Shown piece after piece: positions 34 to 31,658 of a stretch of DNA of 33,115 nucleotides. The stretch is from contig WTCA01000016.1 in assembly GCA_013138805.1 (NCBI GenBank), forward strand, positions 1 through 33,115. Direction: 5' to 3'. A program made the position numbers and the translations under genes. The DNA is from an archaeon (GTDB taxonomy: Archaea > EX4484-52 > GLR71). The notes beneath the pieces are model-generated. The model had not been told where the DNA came from, made no database searches, and saw nothing but the letters and a program-made list of their open reading frames with translations. The stretch's first letter is position 1; the number at the start of each line of letters is the position of its first letter.

Positions 34-1125
34 ATGAACAAAAACCTGACTGAATTATACAGCAACAAAAATCTTTATCCCGCAGGCATAGATTTCTACC
101 CGCCCGCAGAAAGAGTGCCTCATTCTATAATATTTGAATTAGATACCGGCTGCAGTTATAACAGATGCACATATTGTGAAGGATTTAAAGGTGTCCCGCA
201 CAAAATAAAGACTCTGGAAGAGTATCAGCAGCATGTTGATGACATCTTTGAACAGTTGGGAGATTACACAAAATATCTGAGAAAAATATTCATAGGCGGT
301 GCAGATGCAATTGACACAGAGACTGAACTGCTGCATGAAGCAACCGATTATACAATTTATCAGTTTATTGAGCATACCGGAAGAAAACCGGACAGAGTAT
401 CATTATACGGCCGGACAGACAGCATAAAGAAAAAAGGGCCAAAAGATATGAAATACCTGTATACAGGCTACAGAAATAAAGGCATTTCAGGGTTTCTGAA
501 AGATACCGGCCTGACAGTGATGAGCCCGAAAAGAATAGTGCCAAGATTGATATACTGGGGTGTGGAGAGCGGCTCAGATGAAGTCCTGGACTATGTAGAC
601 AAAGGATATACAAAAAATGATATTCTGGAAAGTGCAGAAATTTTGAATAAGATAAGGCTCCCTTACATATTTACAGACTTTGGCACTCTTTTTAATACAT
701 CTGTCATGATCATGCCAGGCCTTGGCGGCAAAAAATTCTATGATGAGCATATAGACGGCACAGTAGAGGTTATTAATGCTATCAATCCCAGGTATTTGAC
801 ATTTATGGGTATAAATCCTCCGGAAAATTCAGCATATGCACAAAAGATGGAAGAGGAAATAAAAACCGGCGCAAACAGGCCGCTGACAGAAAGAGAGATG
901 AGTGAGCAGATGATATCTATGATTGAAAATGCACATCTGTTCCCCTGCACAATCGGATGTTTCGGAGAGGATATAGATGCTGTCGGTCACAATCCATTGC
1001 CATTTGGTTCAGTCTATCATAGTTACGGACGTTTTTATTCAACTAAAAAAAACCTTGTCAAATCTCTGAAATTCAAGTTATTTAATGCAGATGATGATGA
1101 TGCCGGTGCAATAAAGTTGATTTGA
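34..1125 (+). CDS. Radical SAM protein, unknown substrate
   Basis: This 363-residue protein carries a radical SAM iron-sulfur motif of the spaced form C-x4-C-x2-C (C40, C45, C48, in GCSYNRCTYC), followed by an FIGGADA segment that fits the SAM-binding glycine motif and a YWGVESGSDEVLDYVDKG segment typical of the COG1032-like branch. In this family a [4Fe-4S] cluster cleaves S-adenosylmethionine to start radical chemistry. I cannot name the substrate. No B12-binding or TRAM domain is visible. The protein is probably cytosolic, with no signal or membrane segment. The ATG at 34 is about 25 bases after a TATA-like stretch at the window edge, so the mRNA may be leaderless. The next gene has its own promoter, so this one is probably monocistronic. 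Confidence 0.85.
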   Translation: MNKNLTELYSNKNLYPAGIDFYPPAERVPHSIIFELDTGCSYNRCTYCEGFKGVPHKIKTLEEYQQHVDDIFEQLGDYTKYLRKIFIGGADAIDTETELLHEATDYTIYQFIEHTGRKPDRVSLYGRTDSIKKKGPKDMKYLYTGYRNKGISGFLKDTGLTVMSPKRIVPRLIYWGVESGSDEVLDYVDKGYTKNDILESAEILNKIRLPYIFTDFGTLFNTSVMIMPGLGGKKFYDEHIDGTVEVINAINPRYLTFMGINPPENSAYAQKMEEEIKTGANRPLTEREMSEQMISMIENAHLFPCTIGCFGEDIDAVGHNPLPFGSVYHSYGRFYSTKKNLVKSLKFKLFNADDDDAGAIKLI

Positions 1126-1154
1126 TATATCCCTTTCTTCTCAATCAACCAAAA

Positions 1155-1172
1155 CCGAAATCTTTATATACT
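1155..1172 (+). promoter_or_regulatory. TATA promoter for the C1A protease gene
   Basis: The stretch ACCGAAATCTTTATATAC matches an archaeal BRE plus TATA box. Transcription would begin near 1190. That lies downstream of the first in-frame ATG at 1122, which rules that codon out as the normal start and supports a start at 1221 or 1233. Confidence 0.6.
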
Positions 1173-1232
1173 ACAAACTATATAAGTAAATACCGGCACA
1201 TCCCAACAAAAGTCTTAAAAATGGTGATAAAA

Positions 1233-3611
1233 ATGATGAAAAAAAATAACAAGATTTCAACAGCATATATTACAGTTATGGTAGTGGCCTGTTTGATAGC
1301 AGGCATATTTATCCTTGATTTTTTTAATGTTTCGAAAGGGGATGGATACCTGGTAGGTCAGGCAACGAAAGTTATGCTTCCTCAGGCAGGGATATCCGAA
1401 TTTACACAGGACGGTTCACCTTCATCATCTGCACTCGACAGGCTGATAGCATCAGATTCAACAATACCTCTTGACATCGGAAAGATCTACAGCCTTTCAA
1501 TAAGCGGAAAAGTTAATCTGGAATCAGACAACAGTCTTGTAAGAGTAATCCTTGTATCCGGGCAGGATGAATACCTTGTCTATGAAGGCTATCCTGATAT
1601 TGCAGCAGGCAAAAGCTCTTTTGTCATAAGCAAATTCTGTGAAGAGACATGCGCACTTGAAAAAGTTCAGGCAGATGCCCTGAAGATACAGGTGGAAGAT
1701 GCAGCAATAGATATCAAAGCAATCAATACTATCAGTTCTTACAAGAATCTGGATGCTTCAGTTAAATCCGAAGGAATCGACAGGTTCAGCAAAGAACTGA
1801 AAGACAAGCAGGATAAATTCAAGATAAAAAAGCTTAATGAGAAAAAGCTCGGCTGGACAGCAGGAGACACTTCTGTATCGCAGCTGAGCTATCAGGAAAA
1901 GAAAAAAGTGATAGGCAATGGTGAGTACCTGCCGAACCTGAACGGTTTTGAATTCTATAAGGGCGGCATCTTTGAGATAAAGCCGAAAGACCAGGCAGCC
2001 AGTACTGAAGAGCCGGACACAGAAAGCGGCGGTTCATCATCACCTGCATCATGGGACTGGAGAGACAGGCACAGTCAGGATTGGGTCACACCTGTAAAAA
2101 GCCAGGGTGCCTGTGGCAGCTGCTGGGCATTCTCAGCAGTCGGAGCCACAGAAGGTGTTATAAACATGTATTACAATCAAAAGCTGGATATCAATCTGGC
2201 AGAACAGGACAGTCTTTGCAGGCATCCGGGAAGCTGCGCAAATGGTGGATATCTTTCATGGACATATAGTGAATTAAGGGCAGACGGCCTGGTAAATGAG
2301 CAGTGTATGCCTTACAAGGCATCAGATACTGTCTGCAATGATATCTGTATCTCACAGCAGCCATGGGAGATAACAAATTACGGTTCCTATGCCAACGATG
2401 ATGAGACAATCAAGAATACTTTGATAAATAAGGGAACTGTATCTTTTGGCGTTCGTTCATGGTGGCATTTCATAACATTGGTAGGCTATTTTGATAATAC
2501 GGACGAGACAGTATGGATAATTAAGAACAGTTGGGGTACAGGATGGGGTGAAGACGGATATGCAAACATGATTGTACCGCAGACTGACAGGTACGGCAAC
2601 ATGTATGCGGAAATGCCGTTCTTCAGTCCCGACCCCGATATGTATCAGGTACAGTGTGTGGATAATGATAATGATACCTACTGCACTTGGGGATTGTCAG
2701 ACAATAAGCCGGCATCATGCCCGTCTGCCTGTAATAAGGAAAAAGATTGTGACGACTCAAATCCTGCATTAGGACCGTTTGACTTAAATTTCAACTGTAT
2801 TGACACCACCACCTGCCATGATTCTGATGGCGGAAAAGTCTATTCAGTCTATGGCCAGGTCACAGCGACTATGGATGAAGGCGTAAACTACGATTATTGC
2901 CTTGATGAATCTACTTTGAGAGAAGTTTACTGCAGCAACGACATAGGAACTTCCCAGACATATGCCTGTCCGGACATTTGCCTGGACGGTGCATGTGTCA
3001 CCCGGTTCTGTGAAGATTCAGACGGCGGAAAAAATTATGATGTCGCAGGAGAGATAACAGGTTACATGATTGATGACAGCCCTGCCTATGATTACTGTAT
3101 TGACAGCACTCAATTGTATGAAGTCTACTGTTTTGATGACCTGGGCTTCCACGAGACATACCAATGCTCTGGTGTATGCCAGGATGATAGGTGCATAGTC
3201 TTAACTCCTCCCGCAATCACAATAACAGATCCTGCAGATGGAATTGCAGTATCTGATAAATTCATAACAGCAGCAACAGTATCCACAAATACAAAGTCAG
3301 TTGACTTCTATATTGACGGAAACTATAAGATGACAGATTCAGCTTCGCCTTTTAAGTATAAGTTCAATACTGGGGCCTATAACGGTGAAACAATCATAAC
3401 AGCAGTTGCCCGGGCAGATAATGGCCTGGATGCCCAGGATTCGGTCAGTGTCATGATTGGAGGAGACGAACCCGCACTTCCTCAATGCAGTGATGGAAAA
3501 GACAATGACCAGGATAAGACATGCGACTATGCAGGATGCCAGAAAAACAAGGTAATCACCTATCCGGGAGATCCGGACTGTACAAGTCCTGAAGATATAT
3601 CTGAATCTTAA
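1233..3611 (+). CDS. Membrane-anchored papain-like (C1A) cysteine protease with Cys-rich repeats
   Basis: I start the protein at the ATG at 1233, because GGTGAT (1223-1228) is a good ribosome site just before it and the promoter lies after the longer frame's first ATG. A hydrophobic segment (about residues 13-33) acts as signal or anchor. A region of about 250 residues follows and may serve as propeptide. The catalytic domain begins near WDWRDRHSQDW and has Cys297 (SQGACGSCWAF, with the oxyanion-hole Gln), His412 (WWHFITLVGY) and Asn432 (IKNSWGTGWGEDGY), so the triad is complete. The C-terminal half has a MopE-like metal-binding stretch (DNDNDTYC, KDCDDSNP), two roughly 60-residue repeats starting CHDSDGG and CEDSDGG, an Ig-like domain, and a tail with CSDGKDNDQDKTCDY. 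The role is probably cell-surface or extracellular proteolysis. The cysteine count suggests disulfides. Confidence 0.9.
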   Translation: MMKKNNKISTAYITVMVVACLIAGIFILDFFNVSKGDGYLVGQATKVMLPQAGISEFTQDGSPSSSALDRLIASDSTIPLDIGKIYSLSISGKVNLESDNSLVRVILVSGQDEYLVYEGYPDIAAGKSSFVISKFCEETCALEKVQADALKIQVEDAAIDIKAINTISSYKNLDASVKSEGIDRFSKELKDKQDKFKIKKLNEKKLGWTAGDTSVSQLSYQEKKKVIGNGEYLPNLNGFEFYKGGIFEIKPKDQAASTEEPDTESGGSSSPASWDWRDRHSQDWVTPVKSQGACGSCWAFSAVGATEGVINMYYNQKLDINLAEQDSLCRHPGSCANGGYLSWTYSELRADGLVNEQCMPYKASDTVCNDICISQQPWEITNYGSYANDDETIKNTLINKGTVSFGVRSWWHFITLVGYFDNTDETVWIIKNSWGTGWGEDGYANMIVPQTDRYGNMYAEMPFFSPDPDMYQVQCVDNDNDTYCTWGLSDNKPASCPSACNKEKDCDDSNPALGPFDLNFNCIDTTTCHDSDGGKVYSVYGQVTATMDEGVNYDYCLDESTLREVYCSNDIGTSQTYACPDICLDGACVTRFCEDSDGGKNYDVAGEITGYMIDDSPAYDYCIDSTQLYEVYCFDDLGFHETYQCSGVCQDDRCIVLTPPAITITDPADGIAVSDKFITAATVSTNTKSVDFYIDGNYKMTDSASPFKYKFNTGAYNGETIITAVARADNGLDAQDSVSVMIGGDEPALPQCSDGKDNDQDKTCDYAGCQKNKVITYPGDPDCTSPEDISES

Positions 3612-17291: not shown

Positions 17292-17327
17292 GGTATATAT
17301 TCATACCTTATGGTACGAAATTATACC
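17292..17327. promoter_or_regulatory. Two tandem operators GGTA-N8-TACC
   Basis: GGTATATATTCATACC (17292-17307) and GGTACGAAATTATACC (17312-17327) are both 16-base inverted repeats with the same GGTA/TACC ends and the same 8-base gap. Their centres are 20 bases apart, close to two helical turns. They cover the predicted transcription start and the first six codons, where a bound repressor would block initiation. The product of the first gene has its own helix-turn-helix and could bind here. Confidence 0.6.
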
Positions 17328-17861
17328 TATCTGGAAATATATCTGGATGATCTGAACAAAAAAGTTTCATTAAGCGAATTAGAGAAACACTTCAAAAGAC
17401 CGCACCAGACAGTCAAGAATCAACTAAAAATATTAGTCAAGGAAAAAATACTGTTAGAAGATAAGAGAACAAGGTTTTTATTCTATGAAATAAACAGAGA
17501 TAATCCTGCTTTGAAAGAATACTTGTCAATATGTGAAAAAGAGAAGATGTTTAGAATAATGAATCAAAGGCCCTTAATAAAAAGATTATATACATTGCTT
17601 GCACACGAAGTAGAAAATATGCTGGTTTTTGGTTCAGCAGCGACATCTGAAAAATTCAATGATATAGATCTGCTGGTCATATCAAAAAATAATATTAAAA
17701 AAATAATAGAAGATTTTGAAATAACATATTCTGTAAAGGTTCATATTATTCAGGCAGAAAAAAAAGATTTGACAAAAACATTTATTACAGAAATCAGAAA
17801 AAAACATATGATTCTTAAAGGTCACGATTTTTTTGTGGAGATGTTGTATGGTAGATATTGA
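17310..17861 (+). CDS. HTH-fused MNT-type nucleotidyltransferase (probable antitoxin)
   Basis: The 183-residue protein has an N-terminal winged-helix region (LEIYLDDLNKKVSLSELEKH, RPHQTVKNQLKILVKEKIL, about residues 5-60) and a minimal nucleotidyltransferase domain with VFGSAATSEKFNDIDLLVIS, the GS-x9-DxD motif, near residues 110-129. The third acidic residue expected in the next strand (VKVHII) appears to be His, so activity is uncertain. In known MNT/HEPN systems the nucleotidyltransferase neutralises the HEPN RNase, in some cases by AMPylating it. The fused HTH suggests it also represses its own operon. It overlaps the next gene by 14 bases. Base composition is AT-rich compared with the neighbours. 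Confidence 0.75.
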   Translation: MVRNYTYLEIYLDDLNKKVSLSELEKHFKRPHQTVKNQLKILVKEKILLEDKRTRFLFYEINRDNPALKEYLSICEKEKMFRIMNQRPLIKRLYTLLAHEVENMLVFGSAATSEKFNDIDLLVISKNNIKKIIEDFEITYSVKVHIIQAEKKDLTKTFITEIRKKHMILKGHDFFVEMLYGRY

Positions 17862-18300
17862 ATGGTGCAAAAAGAAAGGCTTAAGACTCATTGAACCCAA
17901 TAGCAATCTGGCAGAAGAATATTATAGAAATGCTGAAGAAACACTTAAAGTCACAAATCTTATCAAGGATTCCGGTTCAAATATGTGGCTTGCAACACAA
18001 AAATATTACACTGAATACCTTGCAGCATATGCTATATTGATGAGAATAGGTATCAAGACTGAGATACATTCATGTACAATAAAGATTATCGAGCTGCTGC
18101 AGGAAAAAGATATAATTGATTTCAATTACACAGAAATTCTTGAGGAAGACAAAGAATTAAGGATAGATAATCAATACTACCTTAAGAACAGGCCTGTTGA
18201 TTTTGATTCAAATAAATTGGCACAGCTCCTGCTAAAGATAAGGCATATTCTTGATACAATTACAGAAGAAAAGATTGATGAGATAAGGAACCTTATATAG
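17848..18300 (+). CDS. HEPN-domain protein (probable RNase toxin)
   Basis: The 150-residue, mostly helical protein resembles the HEPN/UPF0332 group: a stretch NLAEEYYRNAEETLK, then QKYYTEYLAAYAILMRIGIK with H following (R-x7-H), and a later LLLKIRHILDTI helix. The classical toxin motif is R-x4-6-H; here the spacing is 7, so the catalytic assignment is tentative. I start at the ATG at 17848, with GGAGATG upstream, inside the end of the HTH-nucleotidyltransferase gene. The overlap indicates coupled translation, usual for toxin-antitoxin pairs. Confidence 0.65.
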   Translation: MVDIEWCKKKGLRLIEPNSNLAEEYYRNAEETLKVTNLIKDSGSNMWLATQKYYTEYLAAYAILMRIGIKTEIHSCTIKIIELLQEKDIIDFNYTEILEEDKELRIDNQYYLKNRPVDFDSNKLAQLLLKIRHILDTITEEKIDEIRNLI

Positions 18301-23708: not shown

Positions 23709-23969
23709 CTATAAATATGCGATGTCATGGTGCTCAATGTCAATGAATTCAATTAGGTTCTTGCTTTCATGTACTCTGTATGTCAGAATAAAGGAATTGC
23801 CTACATGTACCCTAAAACGGTTTTCATATTTTAAGTGTTTGTAATGATAAGGGTTTTGTATGATTTCCATAATTTTTTTACGGCATGAACGCAAAAGAAC
23901 CGGGTCTCTCTTTCTTAACTTGCTAAATTTCCTTTCAAGTGTCTGCGTCAACTCGAATTCATAAGGCAT
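23709..23969 (-). CDS. RelE/ParE-family toxin
   Basis: The 86-residue protein has the RelE/ParE fold order: MPYEFELTQTLERKFSKLRK, DPVLLRSCRKKIMEIIQNP, YKHLKYENRFRVHVGNSFIL and a C-terminal FIDIEHHDIAYL, the HHDxxY ending common in archaeal members. RelE toxins cut mRNA on the ribosome. I start at MPYEFEL (ATG 23969), 13 bases after the antitoxin stop; the frame is open further upstream but inside the antitoxin gene. Antitoxin first, toxin second, close together is the standard order. Arg and His residues are present for catalysis, but which ones act is not clear from sequence. Confidence 0.85.
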   Translation of the reverse strand: MPYEFELTQTLERKFSKLRKRDPVLLRSCRKKIMEIIQNPYHYKHLKYENRFRVHVGNSFILTYRVHESKNLIEFIDIEHHDIAYL

Positions 23970-23982
23970 AAGAAACACAGCC

Positions 23983-24198
23983 TTATAGACCAAAGCGTTT
24001 ATCAAAATCCTCGATATTTTTGAAATGAACGCGCTTGTCTTCTTTTTCAATCTTTTCCAATTTTTTGATGTACTCAGGGTTTAATGTCTTATGTATATCT
24101 GTGTCTATCTCGTTTACTGTGGCTTCAATCTGAAGTATCTTATCTTTCAGAAAGTCCAGATCATTTTTTATATCATTCATCGTGGTTGCCTGAGACAT
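23983..24198 (-). CDS. Antitoxin partner of the RelE-type toxin
   Basis: The 71-residue, mostly helical, charged protein begins MSQATTMNDIKNDLDFLKDK and ends HFKNIEDFDKRFGL, a layout seen in archaeal antitoxins paired with RelE: an N-terminal dimerising coiled segment and a C-terminal toxin-binding tail. A clear ribosome site AAGGTGAT lies just before the ATG, and ATATATAAAG (about 24231-24240, minus strand) is its TATA element. No DNA-binding helix-turn-helix is obvious. Confidence 0.75.
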   Translation of the reverse strand: MSQATTMNDIKNDLDFLKDKILQIEATVNEIDTDIHKTLNPEYIKKLEKIEKEDKRVHFKNIEDFDKRFGL

Positions 24199-25729: not shown

Positions 25730-26230
25730 TTGTTGAACTTTTTTAATAGATTGATGAAAAATATTTCAAGACCAAGAATTGCCCTTTTTCTGGACGGCCC
25801 GAACCTGCTGAGAAAGGAGTTTGAAATTGACCTCAACCAGATAAAATCTTATCTCTCAGAATACGGCTCTCTAAGGGAAGCGAAAGTGTTTCTCAACCAG
25901 TTCGCACCTGACAAGCTTATAGAGGCTGTAGCAAACCAGGGCTTTGAACCTATAATAGGCGTCGGAGAAAAAAAAGACGACATAGCAAGCGATGTAGACG
26001 TATATGTCGCCACAGCAGCAGTTTCGGCAATCTATAGCCCGCACATAGACATAATAGCTCTTGCGACAAGAGATGCGGATTTCCTGCCAGTCGTCCAGCT
26101 TGCCAAGAGGATGGGCAAAAAAGTCATCATTATAGGCATAGAGCCGGGCTTCTCAAAAGCTCTTCAGCATGCAGCTGACAATGTCATAATACTCCAGACT
26201 AAAAAAGAACGCAAGAAAGCAAAGAAGTGA
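25730..26230 (+). CDS. NYN-domain (LabA/DUF88-like) ribonuclease
   Basis: NYN proteins have a PIN-like fold and often cut RNA. The 166-residue protein has the acidic residues expected: RIALFLDGPNLLRKEF (first Asp), KDDIASDVDVYVATAAVSAI (DxD) and IIALATRDADFLPVVQLAKR (D..D), followed by GKKVIIIGIEPGFS. A lysine-rich tail KKERKKAKK may contact nucleic acid. The start is a TTG at 25730 with GGTGAT (25719-25724) 5 bases upstream; a second TTG follows directly. Its stop lies one base from the convergent AAA+ stop. It follows the RNase P genes by 123 bases but has its own TATA-like element. Confidence 0.85.
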   Translation: MLNFFNRLMKNISRPRIALFLDGPNLLRKEFEIDLNQIKSYLSEYGSLREAKVFLNQFAPDKLIEAVANQGFEPIIGVGEKKDDIASDVDVYVATAAVSAIYSPHIDIIALATRDADFLPVVQLAKRMGKKVIIIGIEPGFSKALQHAADNVIILQTKKERKKAKK

Positions 26231-26231
26231 A

Positions 26232-27347
26232 TCAGGACCGTTTTGTTGGATTGACTTCAACAAGACTGTATTTATCTAAAAACCCAACATTTCTATTGAT
26301 TATATCAATCATTTGACCTTCAATAAACATATCACTACTCCCACAAACTCTGATATCCTGTTCAAATCTTCTGAATAATTTATCCAAATCCCTTCCGGAA
26401 GCTCCCTCTGTTTTGTCAAAAATATATTTAATTTCAGAGTCTTGAAGCGTAAATACAGTATTTTTTTCACTCATCTTTTTAATTATTTCAAGTCTCTCAT
26501 TATTATCTGGAGACGATAATCCTATAATCTGTGCCATCCCTAAAATATCCTTATCAAGGTAAGATATATCATCTGCCGTGTTAATGATAAGAGTCACTAT
26601 GTTAGCATGTTTATGCATATCTATATTTGTAGCCAAAGAGGCCATGAAATAAGAATATGAAGTATCCTTAATATCAAATAACTTTTTATCCTTTTTCAGG
26701 TTTACCTGATCTATGACCACAAGTGCTATATTTCCATTATCCGAATCAGTATGGGCTTCATCATATATCTTGTTCAATATTGCATTGTTCTGAAGCATGA
26801 ATGCCTGCAGCAGATCAAAATAGTTATGTGGAGACCATTCCACAGTTTCATCATAATTATCCCTGCACTCCTTTTTAATAGCTTCCGTCAACATAGTCTT
26901 CCCGATACCTGACGGCCCGTACATCTGAACAATATGCGGAAAGTTTGAATATTCATCAGTTATTTCTCCATAGTCCTTATGTGACTTAAACATGCCGAAC
27001 AGGTCTTCAATAAATAATTTTGCCTCCGAATGCCCGACAACATCATCAAGAGTTGTATTTAATGGATAATTCTCTATAAGGTTTTCAGGAAAACAAATTG
27101 CAATATCTGTATCATAATCTATAGTACCTTCTTCTGATTCTTCAACATTTATCTGAAACATATGATCAGATAGTCCTTCAGCTACCTTGATAACTCTTGA
27201 AGACACTTCTTTTCCATATAATTCATTTAATAAGTATGAAGTAATAGCAGGATTACTAAAATCTAATTTTGGACCGGAAATAGGTCCATTATAGTTTAGA
27301 ACAAGATATGTACACTTTTCTTCATTACCCATACTACTGCTCACCAT
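26232..27347 (-). CDS. AAA+ ATPase with a Walker B Gln (DQ)
   Basis: The 371-residue protein has an unfamiliar N-terminal domain of about 95 residues and an AAA+ core starting LDDVVGHSEAKLFIEDLF. The P-loop is GPSGIGKT (144-151). Walker B reads ALVVIDQV, with Asp213 followed by Gln214 rather than the catalytic Glu; the codon is CAG. Sensor 1 is IINTADD (Asn256), and a sensor 2-like GASGRDLDKL follows. The RPGRFDR region with arginine fingers is not recognisable. It may bind ATP but hydrolyse it poorly. It could start at 27347 or 27332, the latter with GGTGAG upstream. Two paralogous small genes diverge from it. All are AT-rich. It ends one base from the NYN stop. Confidence 0.75.
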   Translation of the reverse strand: MVSSSMGNEEKCTYLVLNYNGPISGPKLDFSNPAITSYLLNELYGKEVSSRVIKVAEGLSDHMFQINVEESEEGTIDYDTDIAICFPENLIENYPLNTTLDDVVGHSEAKLFIEDLFGMFKSHKDYGEITDEYSNFPHIVQMYGPSGIGKTMLTEAIKKECRDNYDETVEWSPHNYFDLLQAFMLQNNAILNKIYDEAHTDSDNGNIALVVIDQVNLKKDKKLFDIKDTSYSYFMASLATNIDMHKHANIVTLIINTADDISYLDKDILGMAQIIGLSSPDNNERLEIIKKMSEKNTVFTLQDSEIKYIFDKTEGASGRDLDKLFRRFEQDIRVCGSSDMFIEGQMIDIINRNVGFLDKYSLVEVNPTKRS

Positions 27348-27546
27348 ATATCAAACCAATAGATACCAGAAATAATGCATAAAGTTTTAAAAATCAATCG
27401 CTTTTACTATTATTTAAGGATTAACATATATACATAGGGATATATCAATTAAGGACATGGCAGAATCCCATACATAAAGACAAAAGATGTATCTTTAAAA
27501 ATATTAATGTTTTTATAGTAATTAAAAATAACTTAAAGTGAATGCT
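27348..27546. promoter_or_regulatory. Divergent AT-rich promoter region of the AAA+ cassette
   Basis: This gap separates the AAA+ gene (minus) from the first small paralogue (plus). TGTTTTTATAGT (27508-27519) predicts transcription of the plus gene from about 27541. A weaker AT-rich element near 27375-27385 could serve the minus strand. No long inverted repeat is seen. Confidence 0.4.
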
Positions 27547-27936
27547 ATGGTATCATCAGATAATCCGGAGATAAGCCTGGAAGAATTCTTGAAATTTATA
27601 AAAAATAAAGCTGCCAATAAAAGAAAAAATACCGCACGAGGTACTAACTATGTCTATAATTTTGGGAATGATCTGAAATCATATCTAAACGATAAAGATT
27701 CTATACCCGAAGCGGATTATAATAAGATGGATACGATATATTCCGGACTATTACAAAATATGAAGGATAGCAGTATTTTAGACGATTCTGAAAACAGCCT
27801 TGATAACTGGGCATTCTATTTCTATAATAAAAAGAAGGACGAATTAGGATTTAATTTTAAACTGGTCAATAATTTTGTTAACACGACATTAAAAAAATAC
27901 ATTGAAGAGTATCTAGACACTAAAAAAAAGGTGTAA
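27547..27936 (+). CDS. Small helical protein of the AAA+ cassette, paralogue 1
   Basis: I do not recognise this 129-residue protein. It is lysine-rich and predicted helical. The opening ISLEEFLKFIKNKAANKRKN faintly recalls the core-binding domain of tyrosine recombinases, without a catalytic domain. Shared elements with the next gene include IYSGLLQNMKDSSILD / IYDSIVEEMQQGTIFD, an NSLDNW / KSLEAW motif with a downstream NK, and LKKYIEEYL / IKSYIEKYQ at the end, so the two arose by duplication. The ATG at 27547 is preferred over GTG 27538 since AAGTGA lies just upstream. The stop is 4 bases from the next start. Confidence 0.65.
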   Translation: MVSSDNPEISLEEFLKFIKNKAANKRKNTARGTNYVYNFGNDLKSYLNDKDSIPEADYNKMDTIYSGLLQNMKDSSILDDSENSLDNWAFYFYNKKKDELGFNFKLVNNFVNTTLKKYIEEYLDTKKKV

Positions 27937-27940
27937 TAAA

Positions 27941-28339
27941 TTGGTATTTGAGTATAAATTTACAGATGATGAGCTTGAAAAGATTACTCTTGAATCATTT
28001 AGATTATATCTTGAAAACAATAAGAAAACAGTAACAGAATCAAGATGGGATCATACATTAAATATAATTGAAGATATAGATCTTATACTGAAGCATGAAA
28101 GAGAAGAATATTGCTCCGATAATATATCGTATATAAAAAGCATATACGACAGCATTGTAGAAGAGATGCAACAGGGCACAATCTTTGATGGTAAAAGTCT
28201 TGAGGCGTGGAAGACATATTGCCTGAACAAGCACAATGGTGAAGAAAAAAATGGGAAGAGGTTAAATTCAAGAAAGATCGATGATTTCTTAAAAACTTTC
28301 AGACTAAAAATTAAAAGCTATATCGAAAAATATCAATAA
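27941..28339 (+). CDS. Small helical protein of the AAA+ cassette, paralogue 2
   Basis: This 132-residue protein is a diverged copy of the preceding gene product, sharing its I-Y-x(6)-M core, S-L-x(2)-W motif and K-x-Y-I-E-x-Y ending. It opens VFEYKFTDDELEKITLESF and has KTVTESRWDHTLNIIEDID in the middle. No known domain is recognised. The start is a TTG at 27941 with GGTGTA upstream that overlaps the previous stop region. It is probably cotranscribed with paralogue 1 and converges on the aRF1 gene 30 bases away. Two similar subunits suggest a hetero-oligomer, perhaps handled by the AAA+ protein. Confidence 0.65.
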   Translation: MVFEYKFTDDELEKITLESFRLYLENNKKTVTESRWDHTLNIIEDIDLILKHEREEYCSDNISYIKSIYDSIVEEMQQGTIFDGKSLEAWKTYCLNKHNGEEKNGKRLNSRKIDDFLKTFRLKIKSYIEKYQ

Positions 28340-28369: not shown

Positions 28370-29569
28370 TCACATCTTATACCTAAGCACAGCCCCGATG
28401 CCGCCAAGCTGAAGAAACTGCGCGCCTTCAGGCGTCTCAGAGCTCACTTCCACAAAAGCAGAACCCATGTCTTCAGCCATCTTCTCCAGCTCTTCAACAA
28501 GGTCAGCCTTCTCAGAGACAATTAGTTCCCCCGAACACTTAGGGCACTTGTCAGGCAGGCTCTCTCTCTTTGCAGCCTTCTCCTCAGAAAAGCTGCAATG
28601 CTTACACTTCAGCTCAAAATGGCGCAGAGGTATATCCTCAGAAACTATAAGCTTTTTGACAGCACCAATCTTGAGCGCATTGACAACATCAATATGCCCA
28701 TACGACGCAAGGCCGTCCTCTTTCTTCAGGTGATCAAAAAAATCCTTTATGATATCTCTTTCAATAGTGGCAGACGCCTCTTTAAGCACATCATCAGACC
28801 TCTCAAGAAGCTCTTTAAGTCCCGGCTCGCCCGAATATGATAAGTCCTTTATGCCTATAATCTTCTTCTTCAGCGCCTCAGAGAGAAAGTCGCCGTCAGC
28901 AAAAGTCTCTTTCACAGGCCCCGGGCCGCCTATCAGCACACCTTTAAGGTTCCTGTTCTGTTCAAAAGTTTTGGTGGCAGCTTCACCCACCATCTTCATA
29001 AAACTCAGCAGAAGCCCGGCACGTACCCTCTCAAACCTCTGTGCACTCTGCCCGCCCTTACCTGTCTTTCCGGGAACCATAGAATTAAAATTATGCGAGA
29101 CCTTTATTGCTTTTCCCAGAAGAAACCCGACACTGGCCTCAGACTTATCTATAGTCACAAGGCCGTATACCTCTTTTTCCTCGACAAGCTCTTTCAGGTG
29201 GTCTATAAGGAATGTCTGCTCACACCTGTATGTCCTCAGGTTTATAGGCTCAGGAGGCTCAAACATCCACAGCTTTATATCAGATGTCCCTTCATTCTCA
29301 GACACATTTCCGCTGTATATGCACAGGCCGTTGGGCGGTGTCACCTTAAACACCCTCAATGCCTGATCTATCCTTGCAAGTGCTCCGGCAACATTTTTCC
29401 TTGTAGTCTTAGACTTGATATTGGCAACAGTTCCTGCTTCCTGCCGGACCATATTGTTTATCTCATTTATATTGTATCCGGAAGGCACGCTTATAGAGAC
29501 AAGTTCAGTATGCCGCCCCCTGTAAGAGCCAAGCTCTTTTATAAGAGTCTTGAGCTGCCTTTTTGACAT
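28370..29569 (-). CDS. prf1: Peptide chain release factor aRF1
   Basis: aRF1 reads all three stop codons and releases the peptide. From the ATG at 29569 it has 399 residues, close to usual archaeal length. Domain 1 has the conserved LGSYRGRHTELVSISVP, NIKS (50-53) and YxCxxxF (114-120) stop-decoding motifs. Domain 2 has GKGGQSAQRF with GGQ at 172-174, the peptidyl-transferase trigger. Domain 3 carries a zinc ribbon (CKHC and CPKC) and ends GGIGAVLRYKM. A GTG at 29593 would add eight residues; the family rarely extends so far. The TATA-like region near 29620-29635 would start transcription around 29600. It lies downstream of the 646-aa gene in the same direction. Confidence 0.96.
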   Translation of the reverse strand: MSKRQLKTLIKELGSYRGRHTELVSISVPSGYNINEINNMVRQEAGTVANIKSKTTRKNVAGALARIDQALRVFKVTPPNGLCIYSGNVSENEGTSDIKLWMFEPPEPINLRTYRCEQTFLIDHLKELVEEKEVYGLVTIDKSEASVGFLLGKAIKVSHNFNSMVPGKTGKGGQSAQRFERVRAGLLLSFMKMVGEAATKTFEQNRNLKGVLIGGPGPVKETFADGDFLSEALKKKIIGIKDLSYSGEPGLKELLERSDDVLKEASATIERDIIKDFFDHLKKEDGLASYGHIDVVNALKIGAVKKLIVSEDIPLRHFELKCKHCSFSEEKAAKRESLPDKCPKCSGELIVSEKADLVEELEKMAEDMGSAFVEVSSETPEGAQFLQLGGIGAVLRYKM

Positions 29570-29660
29570 AGTAATATCGTTAAATAAGAACACCTTTCAT
29601 TTCTTGACTGCAGATGCAGTATATTATCTTATGTATAGCAATTTTAAAAAGATTATAGCC

Positions 29661-31592
29661 TTACCAGGGAATATTTATCTTCCTATAGAGAGTGCTTACT
29701 ATTTCCCCGCCCCAGAAAGCGCTTCCTGCAAGCTTGAACATACCCTGCGTAAGCTCATCAAACATGTCTGTCTGATACGGTCCCGGATCAACTCTCCATC
29801 TAAGCTCTATACCAAAATTATCCATAGTCTCTATAAAACTCTTTACTGCCTTGCTCTCTTTCTTGGGAGCAGACTCCCTCTGAAGAACAATATCCCTGTG
29901 GTCATTGAACTTGATAAGTTTTGCCTGAGCTTCCTTTTTTATCACTTCCAGTGCAGCTTCACGGGATTTCGGATCATCCGGACTGCCCGGTATGATTATA
30001 TCAACACTAGATTTTATGCCTGCATTTTTACCTTTCTTTTTAAGTTCATTAAGTTTTTCCTCGCTAAAAAGTACAAAATCATCTTCCTTGTATTTCTTCC
30101 CGTCAATATCAATATTTCCCTCTTCATCAGCATCTTTCTTAAAAGTTTTGCTGCCGAGAATATCATTTTTCTTCTTATATATTATATCATCTTTCTTTAT
30201 CCTGTAAGGCCCGTCCTCTGACTTAAGATAGTATTGTATATAATATTTCTCACGACTCATATTTATTATGTTATCCATCTCAATTTCAGTTTTCTTGTCC
30301 TCGCAGTTTCTTTCTATAAGCTTCAGCAGCATCATATTCTTTGTTACGATATAGCCATGTATCACCCAAGTCCCGTCTTCAAGAGGTGTTGGCTGACCGT
30401 TATCCACCACATTGAATACGCACTTACTATAGTCAATAGTCCAGGCAGTATAGTACCACTCATCTTCCTGCAGGTCAGCAACCCCAAATTTAGCATCTCT
30501 ATCTGATATGCCTGTCCTATCGGAAACATAGCCCTCAATCTGCTTTTCAGTTATCCATGGGTATTTACCGAGAAGCAGTTTACGGCCTTTACCATCTTTT
30601 TCTTTATATATAAAATTCTCCTGTATATAGTAATCATATGCCTTTACACCCTTACCTACATGTTTCGGGCTCTTATATAGCTCGTCAGGCGTCCTCTGAA
30701 GTTTATGCCTCATCCTTATAGGCTTCCAGAGCCAGATTGACTGGTCTGTAAAGCTTCTCGCCTCTCCCGGCCTGTCAAAGAAGTCGCCTGCAGTACCTGC
30801 ACGCCCACCGTCTGACGAAAGCGCATTCTTAAGCATCTTATGCTGCATCACATGCGGCTTTAGCCATTCGCGCCTCTCTTCCAGATATTTTTCCTTAGAC
30901 ATGGACAGGGATTTCACTGTTTTGTACCTCTGATCAATCCCTTCCTTAAAAAGCATCTTCCATTGCGCATATGCAGACCATTTGGCTTTCAGAAAATTCT
31001 TTTCCACCTGCGGCAGTTTCCCGAAAGTTCCGCCCTCTTTCAGATCATCAATTGAAGCCATGCTCAAAAAATCTTCAACAATTGTAGGCATTATGTTTGA
31101 CTTGCGCATGAAAGCCATGCTGAGCCGTCCCTCACCCTGCGCACCTCCTCCGCCTGTATAATAATCCACCTGGTCCACAAACATTGTCTTGAGTGCCGCC
31201 TCATCGCTCTCGCTGAAATAATTCAGCATCTCTTCAGCTTTCCTCACATCATGTTCAAGAAGCTGCCACTGCCCGACCTCATTGCCAATATCTGTAAGCG
31301 TTGTGCTTATTATCCTCTCAAGCTCGCCTCTCTGTACTTTCGCATTCTGGTAGAAAGGATTCTGTGTGCTTGGCGTCACATGGAAACTTTCGTCAACCTT
31401 GAGTACTTTATACTCATTCTGCAAAAGATTAAAAAGAAGGCTGTCATACATCCCCTGTGTCGCCCCAAGAGTAGATGTCACATTTATCTTTCTGTAAGTA
31501 TTCAGGCCTACAGCTACCCAACCTTTCCGTATTACAGCATCAGGACGCCCTGTTGTAATGCCTCCTGCCTGCCAGTCTAAAGCGTCAACCAT
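29661..31592 (-). CDS. Large soluble protein of unknown function
   Basis: I do not recognise this 643-residue protein. It has no signal peptide, membrane segment or clear nucleotide-binding motif. It is rich in Trp, Tyr and Lys, has a glycine run YYTGGGGAQGEGRLS near residue 145, an aromatic DEWYYTAWTIDY stretch, a highly charged segment (about 475-540) and ends YRKINIPW; the same words appear at its start as TYRKINVTSTLG. An ATG at 31592 is preferred to a GTG 9 bases upstream. An ATTTAATATAC element lies near 31630-31640. It is 91 bases before aRF1. Nearby are a 4-TM protein and two Trp/Tyr-rich paralogues that are also unrecognised, so the four may act together. Confidence 0.7.
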   Translation of the reverse strand: MVDALDWQAGGITTGRPDAVIRKGWVAVGLNTYRKINVTSTLGATQGMYDSLLFNLLQNEYKVLKVDESFHVTPSTQNPFYQNAKVQRGELERIISTTLTDIGNEVGQWQLLEHDVRKAEEMLNYFSESDEAALKTMFVDQVDYYTGGGGAQGEGRLSMAFMRKSNIMPTIVEDFLSMASIDDLKEGGTFGKLPQVEKNFLKAKWSAYAQWKMLFKEGIDQRYKTVKSLSMSKEKYLEERREWLKPHVMQHKMLKNALSSDGGRAGTAGDFFDRPGEARSFTDQSIWLWKPIRMRHKLQRTPDELYKSPKHVGKGVKAYDYYIQENFIYKEKDGKGRKLLLGKYPWITEKQIEGYVSDRTGISDRDAKFGVADLQEDEWYYTAWTIDYSKCVFNVVDNGQPTPLEDGTWVIHGYIVTKNMMLLKLIERNCEDKKTEIEMDNIINMSREKYYIQYYLKSEDGPYRIKKDDIIYKKKNDILGSKTFKKDADEEGNIDIDGKKYKEDDFVLFSEEKLNELKKKGKNAGIKSSVDIIIPGSPDDPKSREAALEVIKKEAQAKLIKFNDHRDIVLQRESAPKKESKAVKSFIETMDNFGIELRWRVDPGPYQTDMFDELTQGMFKLAGSAFWGGEIVSTLYRKINIPW

Positions 31593-31658
31593 GATAAACA
31601 CTAACCGATACTATTATTTTCTCTCAGCTAGTATATTAAATTTAGCGGAAAAGACCTT

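What the first reader, a model, noticed from the sequence alone, without database searches (positions are those of the whole stretch)
26232..28339. AT-rich cassette: AAA+ protein with Walker B DQ and two tandem paralogues of unknown type
A Glu-to-Gln change in Walker B is the laboratory trap mutation of AAA+ enzymes; here it is natural. The two divergent small helical proteins are duplicated copies with no known domain. The set looks like a horizontally acquired module between housekeeping genes, with a faint resemblance of the small proteins to recombinase core-binding domains.
Basis: partly seen in the sequence, partly recalled or inferred. Interest (0 to 1): 0.65.

Follow-up and report, generated by a model that had tools for sequence, protein, structure and literature searches.

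The report
Hydrolysis-dead AAA protein with paired helical proteins
Two related, uncultured archaea carry an extra three-gene block between two housekeeping genes, in which an ATP-binding motor protein has lost the parts needed to burn ATP and to grip its substrate, while two small fast-changing helical proteins sit beside it; it is probably an accessory switch-and-effector module, but its function is untested.

Summary
The window holds a 371-aa AAA protein (26232-27347, -) with Walker A GPSGIGKT and Walker B VVID-Q, and two divergently transcribed 132-aa proteins that are true paralogues (25% identity, E 2e-7). The Gln is not an isolated natural trap mutation. In an alignment with 44 archaeal AAA domains, the catalytic Glu, the arginine finger and the pore-loop Gly (all 44/44 in controls) are replaced by Q, G and L; the sensor-1 Asn is probably lost too, but that depends on the alignment. 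Walker A is intact. The second known copy (same genus, Candidatus Aenigmatarchaeota RS_11_38; 82-84% identical) has the same changes. The segment that bears them (202-273) shows 1 nonsynonymous to 6 synonymous codon changes, so it is maintained rather than decaying. The AAA tails and the N-terminal halves of the small proteins change fast. The block was not found in 392 other archaeal genomes; at the same site (NYN gene / release factor aRF1) four congeners have 12-17 bp and two relatives have other orphan genes. Best reading: an accessory, probably conflict-type module with an ATP-binding, hydrolysis-dead switch or scaffold. The function is inferred. The recombinase resemblance is not supported. 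No established family applies beyond the classical AAA superfamily.

The parts
26232..27347 (-). AAA protein, 371 aa; Walker A GPSGIGKT at aa 144-151, Walker B VVIDQ at aa 210-214, no arginine finger (LDKDILGMAQ, aa 264-273), pore-loop Gly replaced by Leu185
27348..27537 (.). shared divergent promoter region, 190 bp, A+T-rich, with small indels between the two genomes
27538..27936 (+). small helical protein 1, 132 aa; GTG start (ATG in the second genome); N-terminal half diverges fast
27941..28339 (+). small helical protein 2, 132 aa; paralogue of protein 1, 4 bp downstream; all-helical low-confidence model
25730..26230 (+). left neighbour, NYN-domain protein; ends 1 bp from the cassette; present in all 9 family genomes
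28370..29593 (-). right neighbour, archaeal release factor aRF1; lies next to the NYN gene in congeners without the cassette

Best explanation
It is a lineage-restricted accessory cassette that entered the tail-to-tail gap between the NYN gene and aRF1 in a common ancestor of two congeneric Aenigmatarchaeota. Shown: three genes, paralogy, empty sites in congeners, loss of the catalytic Glu, arginine finger and pore Gly with Walker A intact, constraint on the altered segment, and fast change in the tails and small proteins. Inferred: the AAA protein binds ATP but hydrolyses it poorly or not at all, so it acts as a nucleotide-bound switch or scaffold rather than a motor or unfoldase. It assembles with the two helical proteins through their conserved C-terminal halves (helices 4-6), while the fast-changing N-terminal halves and AAA tails face a variable partner, most likely a virus, another mobile element or a competitor. 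The module is then of the conflict type (defence or counter-defence), with assembly gated by ATP binding.
For: Catalytic features: E, arginine-finger R and pore G are 44/44 in control domains and Q, G, L here; Walker A is unchanged. Same changes in the second genome. AAA 202-273 has 1N/6S against 61N/26S elsewhere, Fisher p 0.006; AAA 1-97 has 27N/6S and 337-371 has 11N/0S; small protein 1 has 21N/4S in codons 1-65 and 3N/3S in 66-132, with a density difference of p 2.8e-5 (clustering also). Neighbours have omega 0.03-0.12, the cassette genes 0.4-1.0. The NYN-to-aRF1 gap is 12-17 bp in G001, G003, G005 and G006; other orphan AT-rich ORFs lie there in G004 and G007. Absent from 392 other archaeal genomes and from phage records.
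Against: No interaction, ATP-binding or phenotype data. Only two genomes, so selection rests on one pairwise comparison. As a whole, the small proteins cannot be told from neutral change, so relaxed constraint could explain their divergence. No defence gene or mobile-element gene is directly adjacent. The AAA structure model failed (pLDDT 32), so the structural roles come from alignment only.
Confidence: 0.4

Rival explanations
1. Dominant-negative regulator: the degenerate AAA co-assembles into rings of a host AAA machine (Cdc48, PAN or a Vps4-like protein) and slows or redirects it, with the small proteins as adaptors.
For: The core is a recognisable classical AAA domain close in score to PRS2, PAN and Cdc48 D2 models (53-58, 53 and 44 bits). 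Losing the arginine finger and catalytic Glu while keeping ATP binding is what a poison subunit would look like. G000 has a 767-aa Cdc48-type protein.
Against: Identity to the AAA proteins it was compared with is only about 21-25%, and the branch is extremely long, so interface compatibility is doubtful. The N-terminal domain has no detectable counterpart.
Confidence: 0.2
2. Selfish or relic orphan genes: a decaying or nearly neutral insert kept by chance since the common ancestor, with no function for the host.
For: Small proteins have omega 0.7-1.0, and their N fraction matches a neutral simulation (0.77 against 0.77; 0.88 against 0.74). Absent from every other relative.
Against: No frameshift, stop or length change in three ORFs at about 10% divergence. 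AAA N fraction is below neutral (p 0.03), and the 202-273 segment is clearly constrained.
Confidence: 0.15
3. Mobile-element module: an ATP-bound AAA regulator (as in IstB or TnsC, which work through ATP-bound assembly) with recombinase-like DNA-binding helpers.
For: Insertion at a precise site, with empty sites in congeners; weak phrog_1 integrase hint.
Against: No catalytic recombinase, no terminal inverted repeats or target duplication seen at the ends; fold searches show no core-binding-domain match (weak model).
Confidence: 0.08
4. The AAA is an active ATPase in which another acid replaces the catalytic Glu and the small proteins supply the missing arginine finger.
For: Arginines and lysines are plentiful in the small proteins, and trans-activation is known for AAA proteins in general (own knowledge).
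Against: Loss of Glu, Arg and pore Gly together is hard to compensate; no acid lies at 214-216.
Confidence: 0.12

Closest known systems
PRS2-type archaeal AAA proteins (Pfam PF23900/PF23902; about 380 aa)
   Same: Similar length, AAA core followed by a short lid; best core score of the models built here together with PAN (52.7-58 bits); the alignment runs through the DDVVG.EEAK motif before Walker A
   Different: All 15 PRS2 proteins have DE, ATN and an RxRF arginine finger; the N-terminal domain match is no better than shuffles (3.4 against up to 5.6 bits); the tree does not place the query
Cdc48/VCP, AFG2 and PAN AAA ATPases
   Same: Best PDB sequence matches are to the AAA cores of AFG2 and VCP (E 3e-10 to 1e-8)
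   Different: No second AAA domain; catalytic Glu, arginine finger and pore Gly absent
IetA, the ATPase of the IetAS anti-phage system
   Same: AAA core hit in PADLOC (E 8e-7)
   Different: The NCBIfam model of this ATPase hits PRS2 proteins far better (E 3e-42); no subtilase partner here; the match is to the C-terminal part of the AAA core only
Vps4/ESCRT-like set of a congener (L064, G005)
   Same: One AAA protein next to two helical-looking proteins in the same genus
   Different: That AAA has an intact DE and LLSRF; its partners are 227 and 244 aa and were not picked up by any search with the small proteins; different locus

Membership tests
Classical AAA superfamily (PF00004) | Walker A and AAA core above the Pfam gathering score | tested here: met
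   28.3 bits against a cut-off of 21.2; GPSGIGKT with the invariant G, G, K and T
Classical AAA superfamily (PF00004) | Catalytic Walker B glutamate | tested here: not met
   Q214 in both genomes; E in 44/44 controls
Classical AAA superfamily (PF00004) | Arginine finger in the second region of homology | tested here: not met
   G270, with R in 44/44 controls; no Arg in aa 264-275
Classical AAA superfamily (PF00004) | Sensor-1 asparagine | tested here: inconclusive
   Aligns with D259 (N in 44/44), but N256 lies near and a shifted register is possible
PRS2 family | PRS2_N domain (PF23900) and lid (PF23902) | tested here: not met
   No hit at E up to 1 in the query, while 6/6 PRS2 proteins hit; N-terminal score within the shuffle range
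IetAS defence system | IetA above its cut-off and an adjacent subtilase IetS | tested here: not met
   19.5 bits against a cut-off of 510; no protease gene beside it
Tyrosine recombinase core-binding domain (small proteins) | SAM-like fold or sequence match | tested here: inconclusive
   No Pfam match; model pLDDT 64.5; Foldseek best E 1.6 against PDB

The most novel reading that the evidence does not exclude
A new kind of archaeal immune or counter-immune module in which a naturally hydrolysis-dead AAA protein, held in the ATP state, serves as a one-way switch or scaffold for a pair of rapidly evolving helical effectors.
Probability: 0.15. Interest if true: 0.75.

Novelty: new variant of a known kind. 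Interest (0 to 1): 0.4.

Why it matters
Natural AAA proteins that keep ATP binding but lose the catalytic glutamate, the arginine finger and the pore loop together, as stand-alone genes under constraint, would show a AAA core re-used as a switch. Laboratory E-to-Q traps are used to freeze AAA machines; a natural, conserved version would test whether the frozen state has a function of its own. The NYN/aRF1 gap is also a usable marker for accessory orphan genes in a poorly known archaeal phylum.

Tried and rejected
Recombinase core-binding domain: phrog_1 E 0.98; Foldseek and VIA hits are generic helical bundles with Z below 5. FliS match of the small proteins (E 0.04) is taken as coiled-coil noise. 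PRS2 membership: first suggested by the alignment of whole sequences, then rejected for the N-terminal domain by the shuffle test and left open by the tree (branch length 4.84, long-branch warning). Searches are superseded: the HMM set was contaminated with Cdc48 rows, and searches failed on a file name. Weak small-protein hits in other genomes (G009, G153) lie inside a coiled-coil-like protein and what looks like topoisomerase VI subunit B. Viral contigs: three scans, no relative; the patterns came from near-identical pairs, so only close relatives could be found. Plasmids: the rows shown were FtsH-like AAA cores. Literature: nothing on a natural DQ AAA of this type was found. AAA structure prediction with two sequences failed (pLDDT 32). 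Terminal repeats: none convincing.

Full report
Observation. The AAA gene (26232-27347, minus strand) ends one base from the NYN gene stop; the two 132-aa genes (27538-27936 and 27941-28339, plus strand) are transcribed away from it, 4 bp apart, from a shared 190-bp A+T-rich region. The block has lower G+C than its neighbours. The small proteins are paralogues. The AAA domain passes the Pfam cut-off. Walker B is VVIDQ.

Who else has it. The window belongs to a Candidatus Aenigmatarchaeota-type genome; the second copy is in JAGLUQ010000029.1, Candidatus Aenigmatarchaeota archaeon RS_11_38 (= G002, judged from the identical sequence and contig length), at 83, 82 and 84% protein identity. Profiles of the AAA protein and of the small proteins found nothing else convincing in 394 archaeal genomes, the 34 genomes of the order, viral contigs, or, for one small protein and the AAA, phage records.

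Insertion site. The NYN gene and aRF1 are present in all nine family genomes. In G001, G003, G005 and G006 the matched ends of the two genes lie only 12-17 bp apart; in G004 a 186-aa orphan ORF and in G007 a 242-aa orphan ORF occupy the gap, neither with a Pfam domain. Both copies of the cassette share the same junctions, so a single insertion in a common ancestor is simplest (inference). No terminal repeats were seen.

Catalytic residues. In an alignment with 44 AAA domains of archaea (PRS2, Cdc48 D1 and D2, and a few PAN or Vps4-like ones), the catalytic Glu, arginine-finger Arg and pore Gly are invariant in the controls and are Q214, G270 and L185 here; the Walker A residues and the Walker B Asp are retained. 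HMMER alignments to AFG2 show the same gap at the arginine finger. The sensor-1 Asn aligns with D259, but the register is uncertain. Loss of hydrolysis and of classical pore-loop threading follows from established AAA biochemistry and was not measured.

Selection. Between the two genomes the AAA core segment 202-273, which contains Walker B, sensor 1 and the former arginine finger, has one nonsynonymous and six synonymous codon changes, against 61 and 26 elsewhere (p 0.006). The segment limits were chosen after seeing the pattern, so the p value is somewhat optimistic. Residues 1-97 have 27 and 6, and residues 337-371 have 11 and 0. Small protein 1 has 21 nonsynonymous and 4 synonymous changes in codons 1-65, and 3 and 3 in 66-132 (clustering tested by permutation). 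Taken whole, the small proteins match a neutral expectation; the contrast along the protein is the stronger signal. One pairwise comparison cannot separate diversifying from relaxed selection.

Family. The core scores 52.7-58 bits with PRS2 models, 53 with PAN, 44 with Cdc48 D2 and 36 with D1. The N-terminal 97 residues do not match the PRS2 N-terminal region beyond shuffles. A tree puts the pair on a very long branch with an explicit long-branch warning. I therefore file it only as a divergent classical AAA protein. The IetA and PRS2 labels fail their tests.

Small proteins. AlphaFold with four sequences gives an all-helical model of modest confidence (pLDDT 64.5, best of five, the others under 50). 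Fold searches return only generic helical bundles. The core-binding-domain idea has no support, but it is not excluded.

Mechanism. The most likely reading is an ATP-binding, hydrolysis-dead AAA switch or scaffold that assembles with the paired helical proteins, in an accessory module of the conflict type. The accessory location, restricted distribution and uneven evolution are shown. Assembly, nucleotide state and target are inferred.

Noticed in passing
window 17310-18300 (+): AT-rich pair: a 183-aa protein that looks like a nucleotidyltransferase with an N-terminal winged helix, overlapping a 155-aa protein that looks like a HEPN protein; resembles an MNT/HEPN toxin-antitoxin pair (by eye only).
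   Followed up: no
window 23709-24198 (-): Small overlapping pair, 113 aa (RelE/ParE-like by eye) and 71 aa (weak DUF2683), probably a toxin-antitoxin pair; no Pfam hit for the larger protein.
   Followed up: partly
NYN/aRF1 gap, L051 1230-1790 and L052 2315-3043: The same intergenic gap holds different orphan AT-rich ORFs (186 aa in G004, 242 aa in G007), so it may be a recurrent landing site for accessory genes.
   Followed up: partly
L064 1789-4362 (G005, same genus): AAA protein with a helical-looking N-terminus beside two proteins of 227 and 244 aa without Pfam matches; may be a divergent Vps4/ESCRT-III-like set (by eye).
   Followed up: partly
window 29661-31601 (-): 646-aa protein without a Pfam domain, next to aRF1 and with a similar C-terminus at the same place in G002 and G004.
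   Followed up: no
window 1122-3611 (+): 829-aa protein with an N-terminal hydrophobic stretch and a papain-like cysteine peptidase region (by eye), unusual in a small archaeal genome.
   Followed up: no
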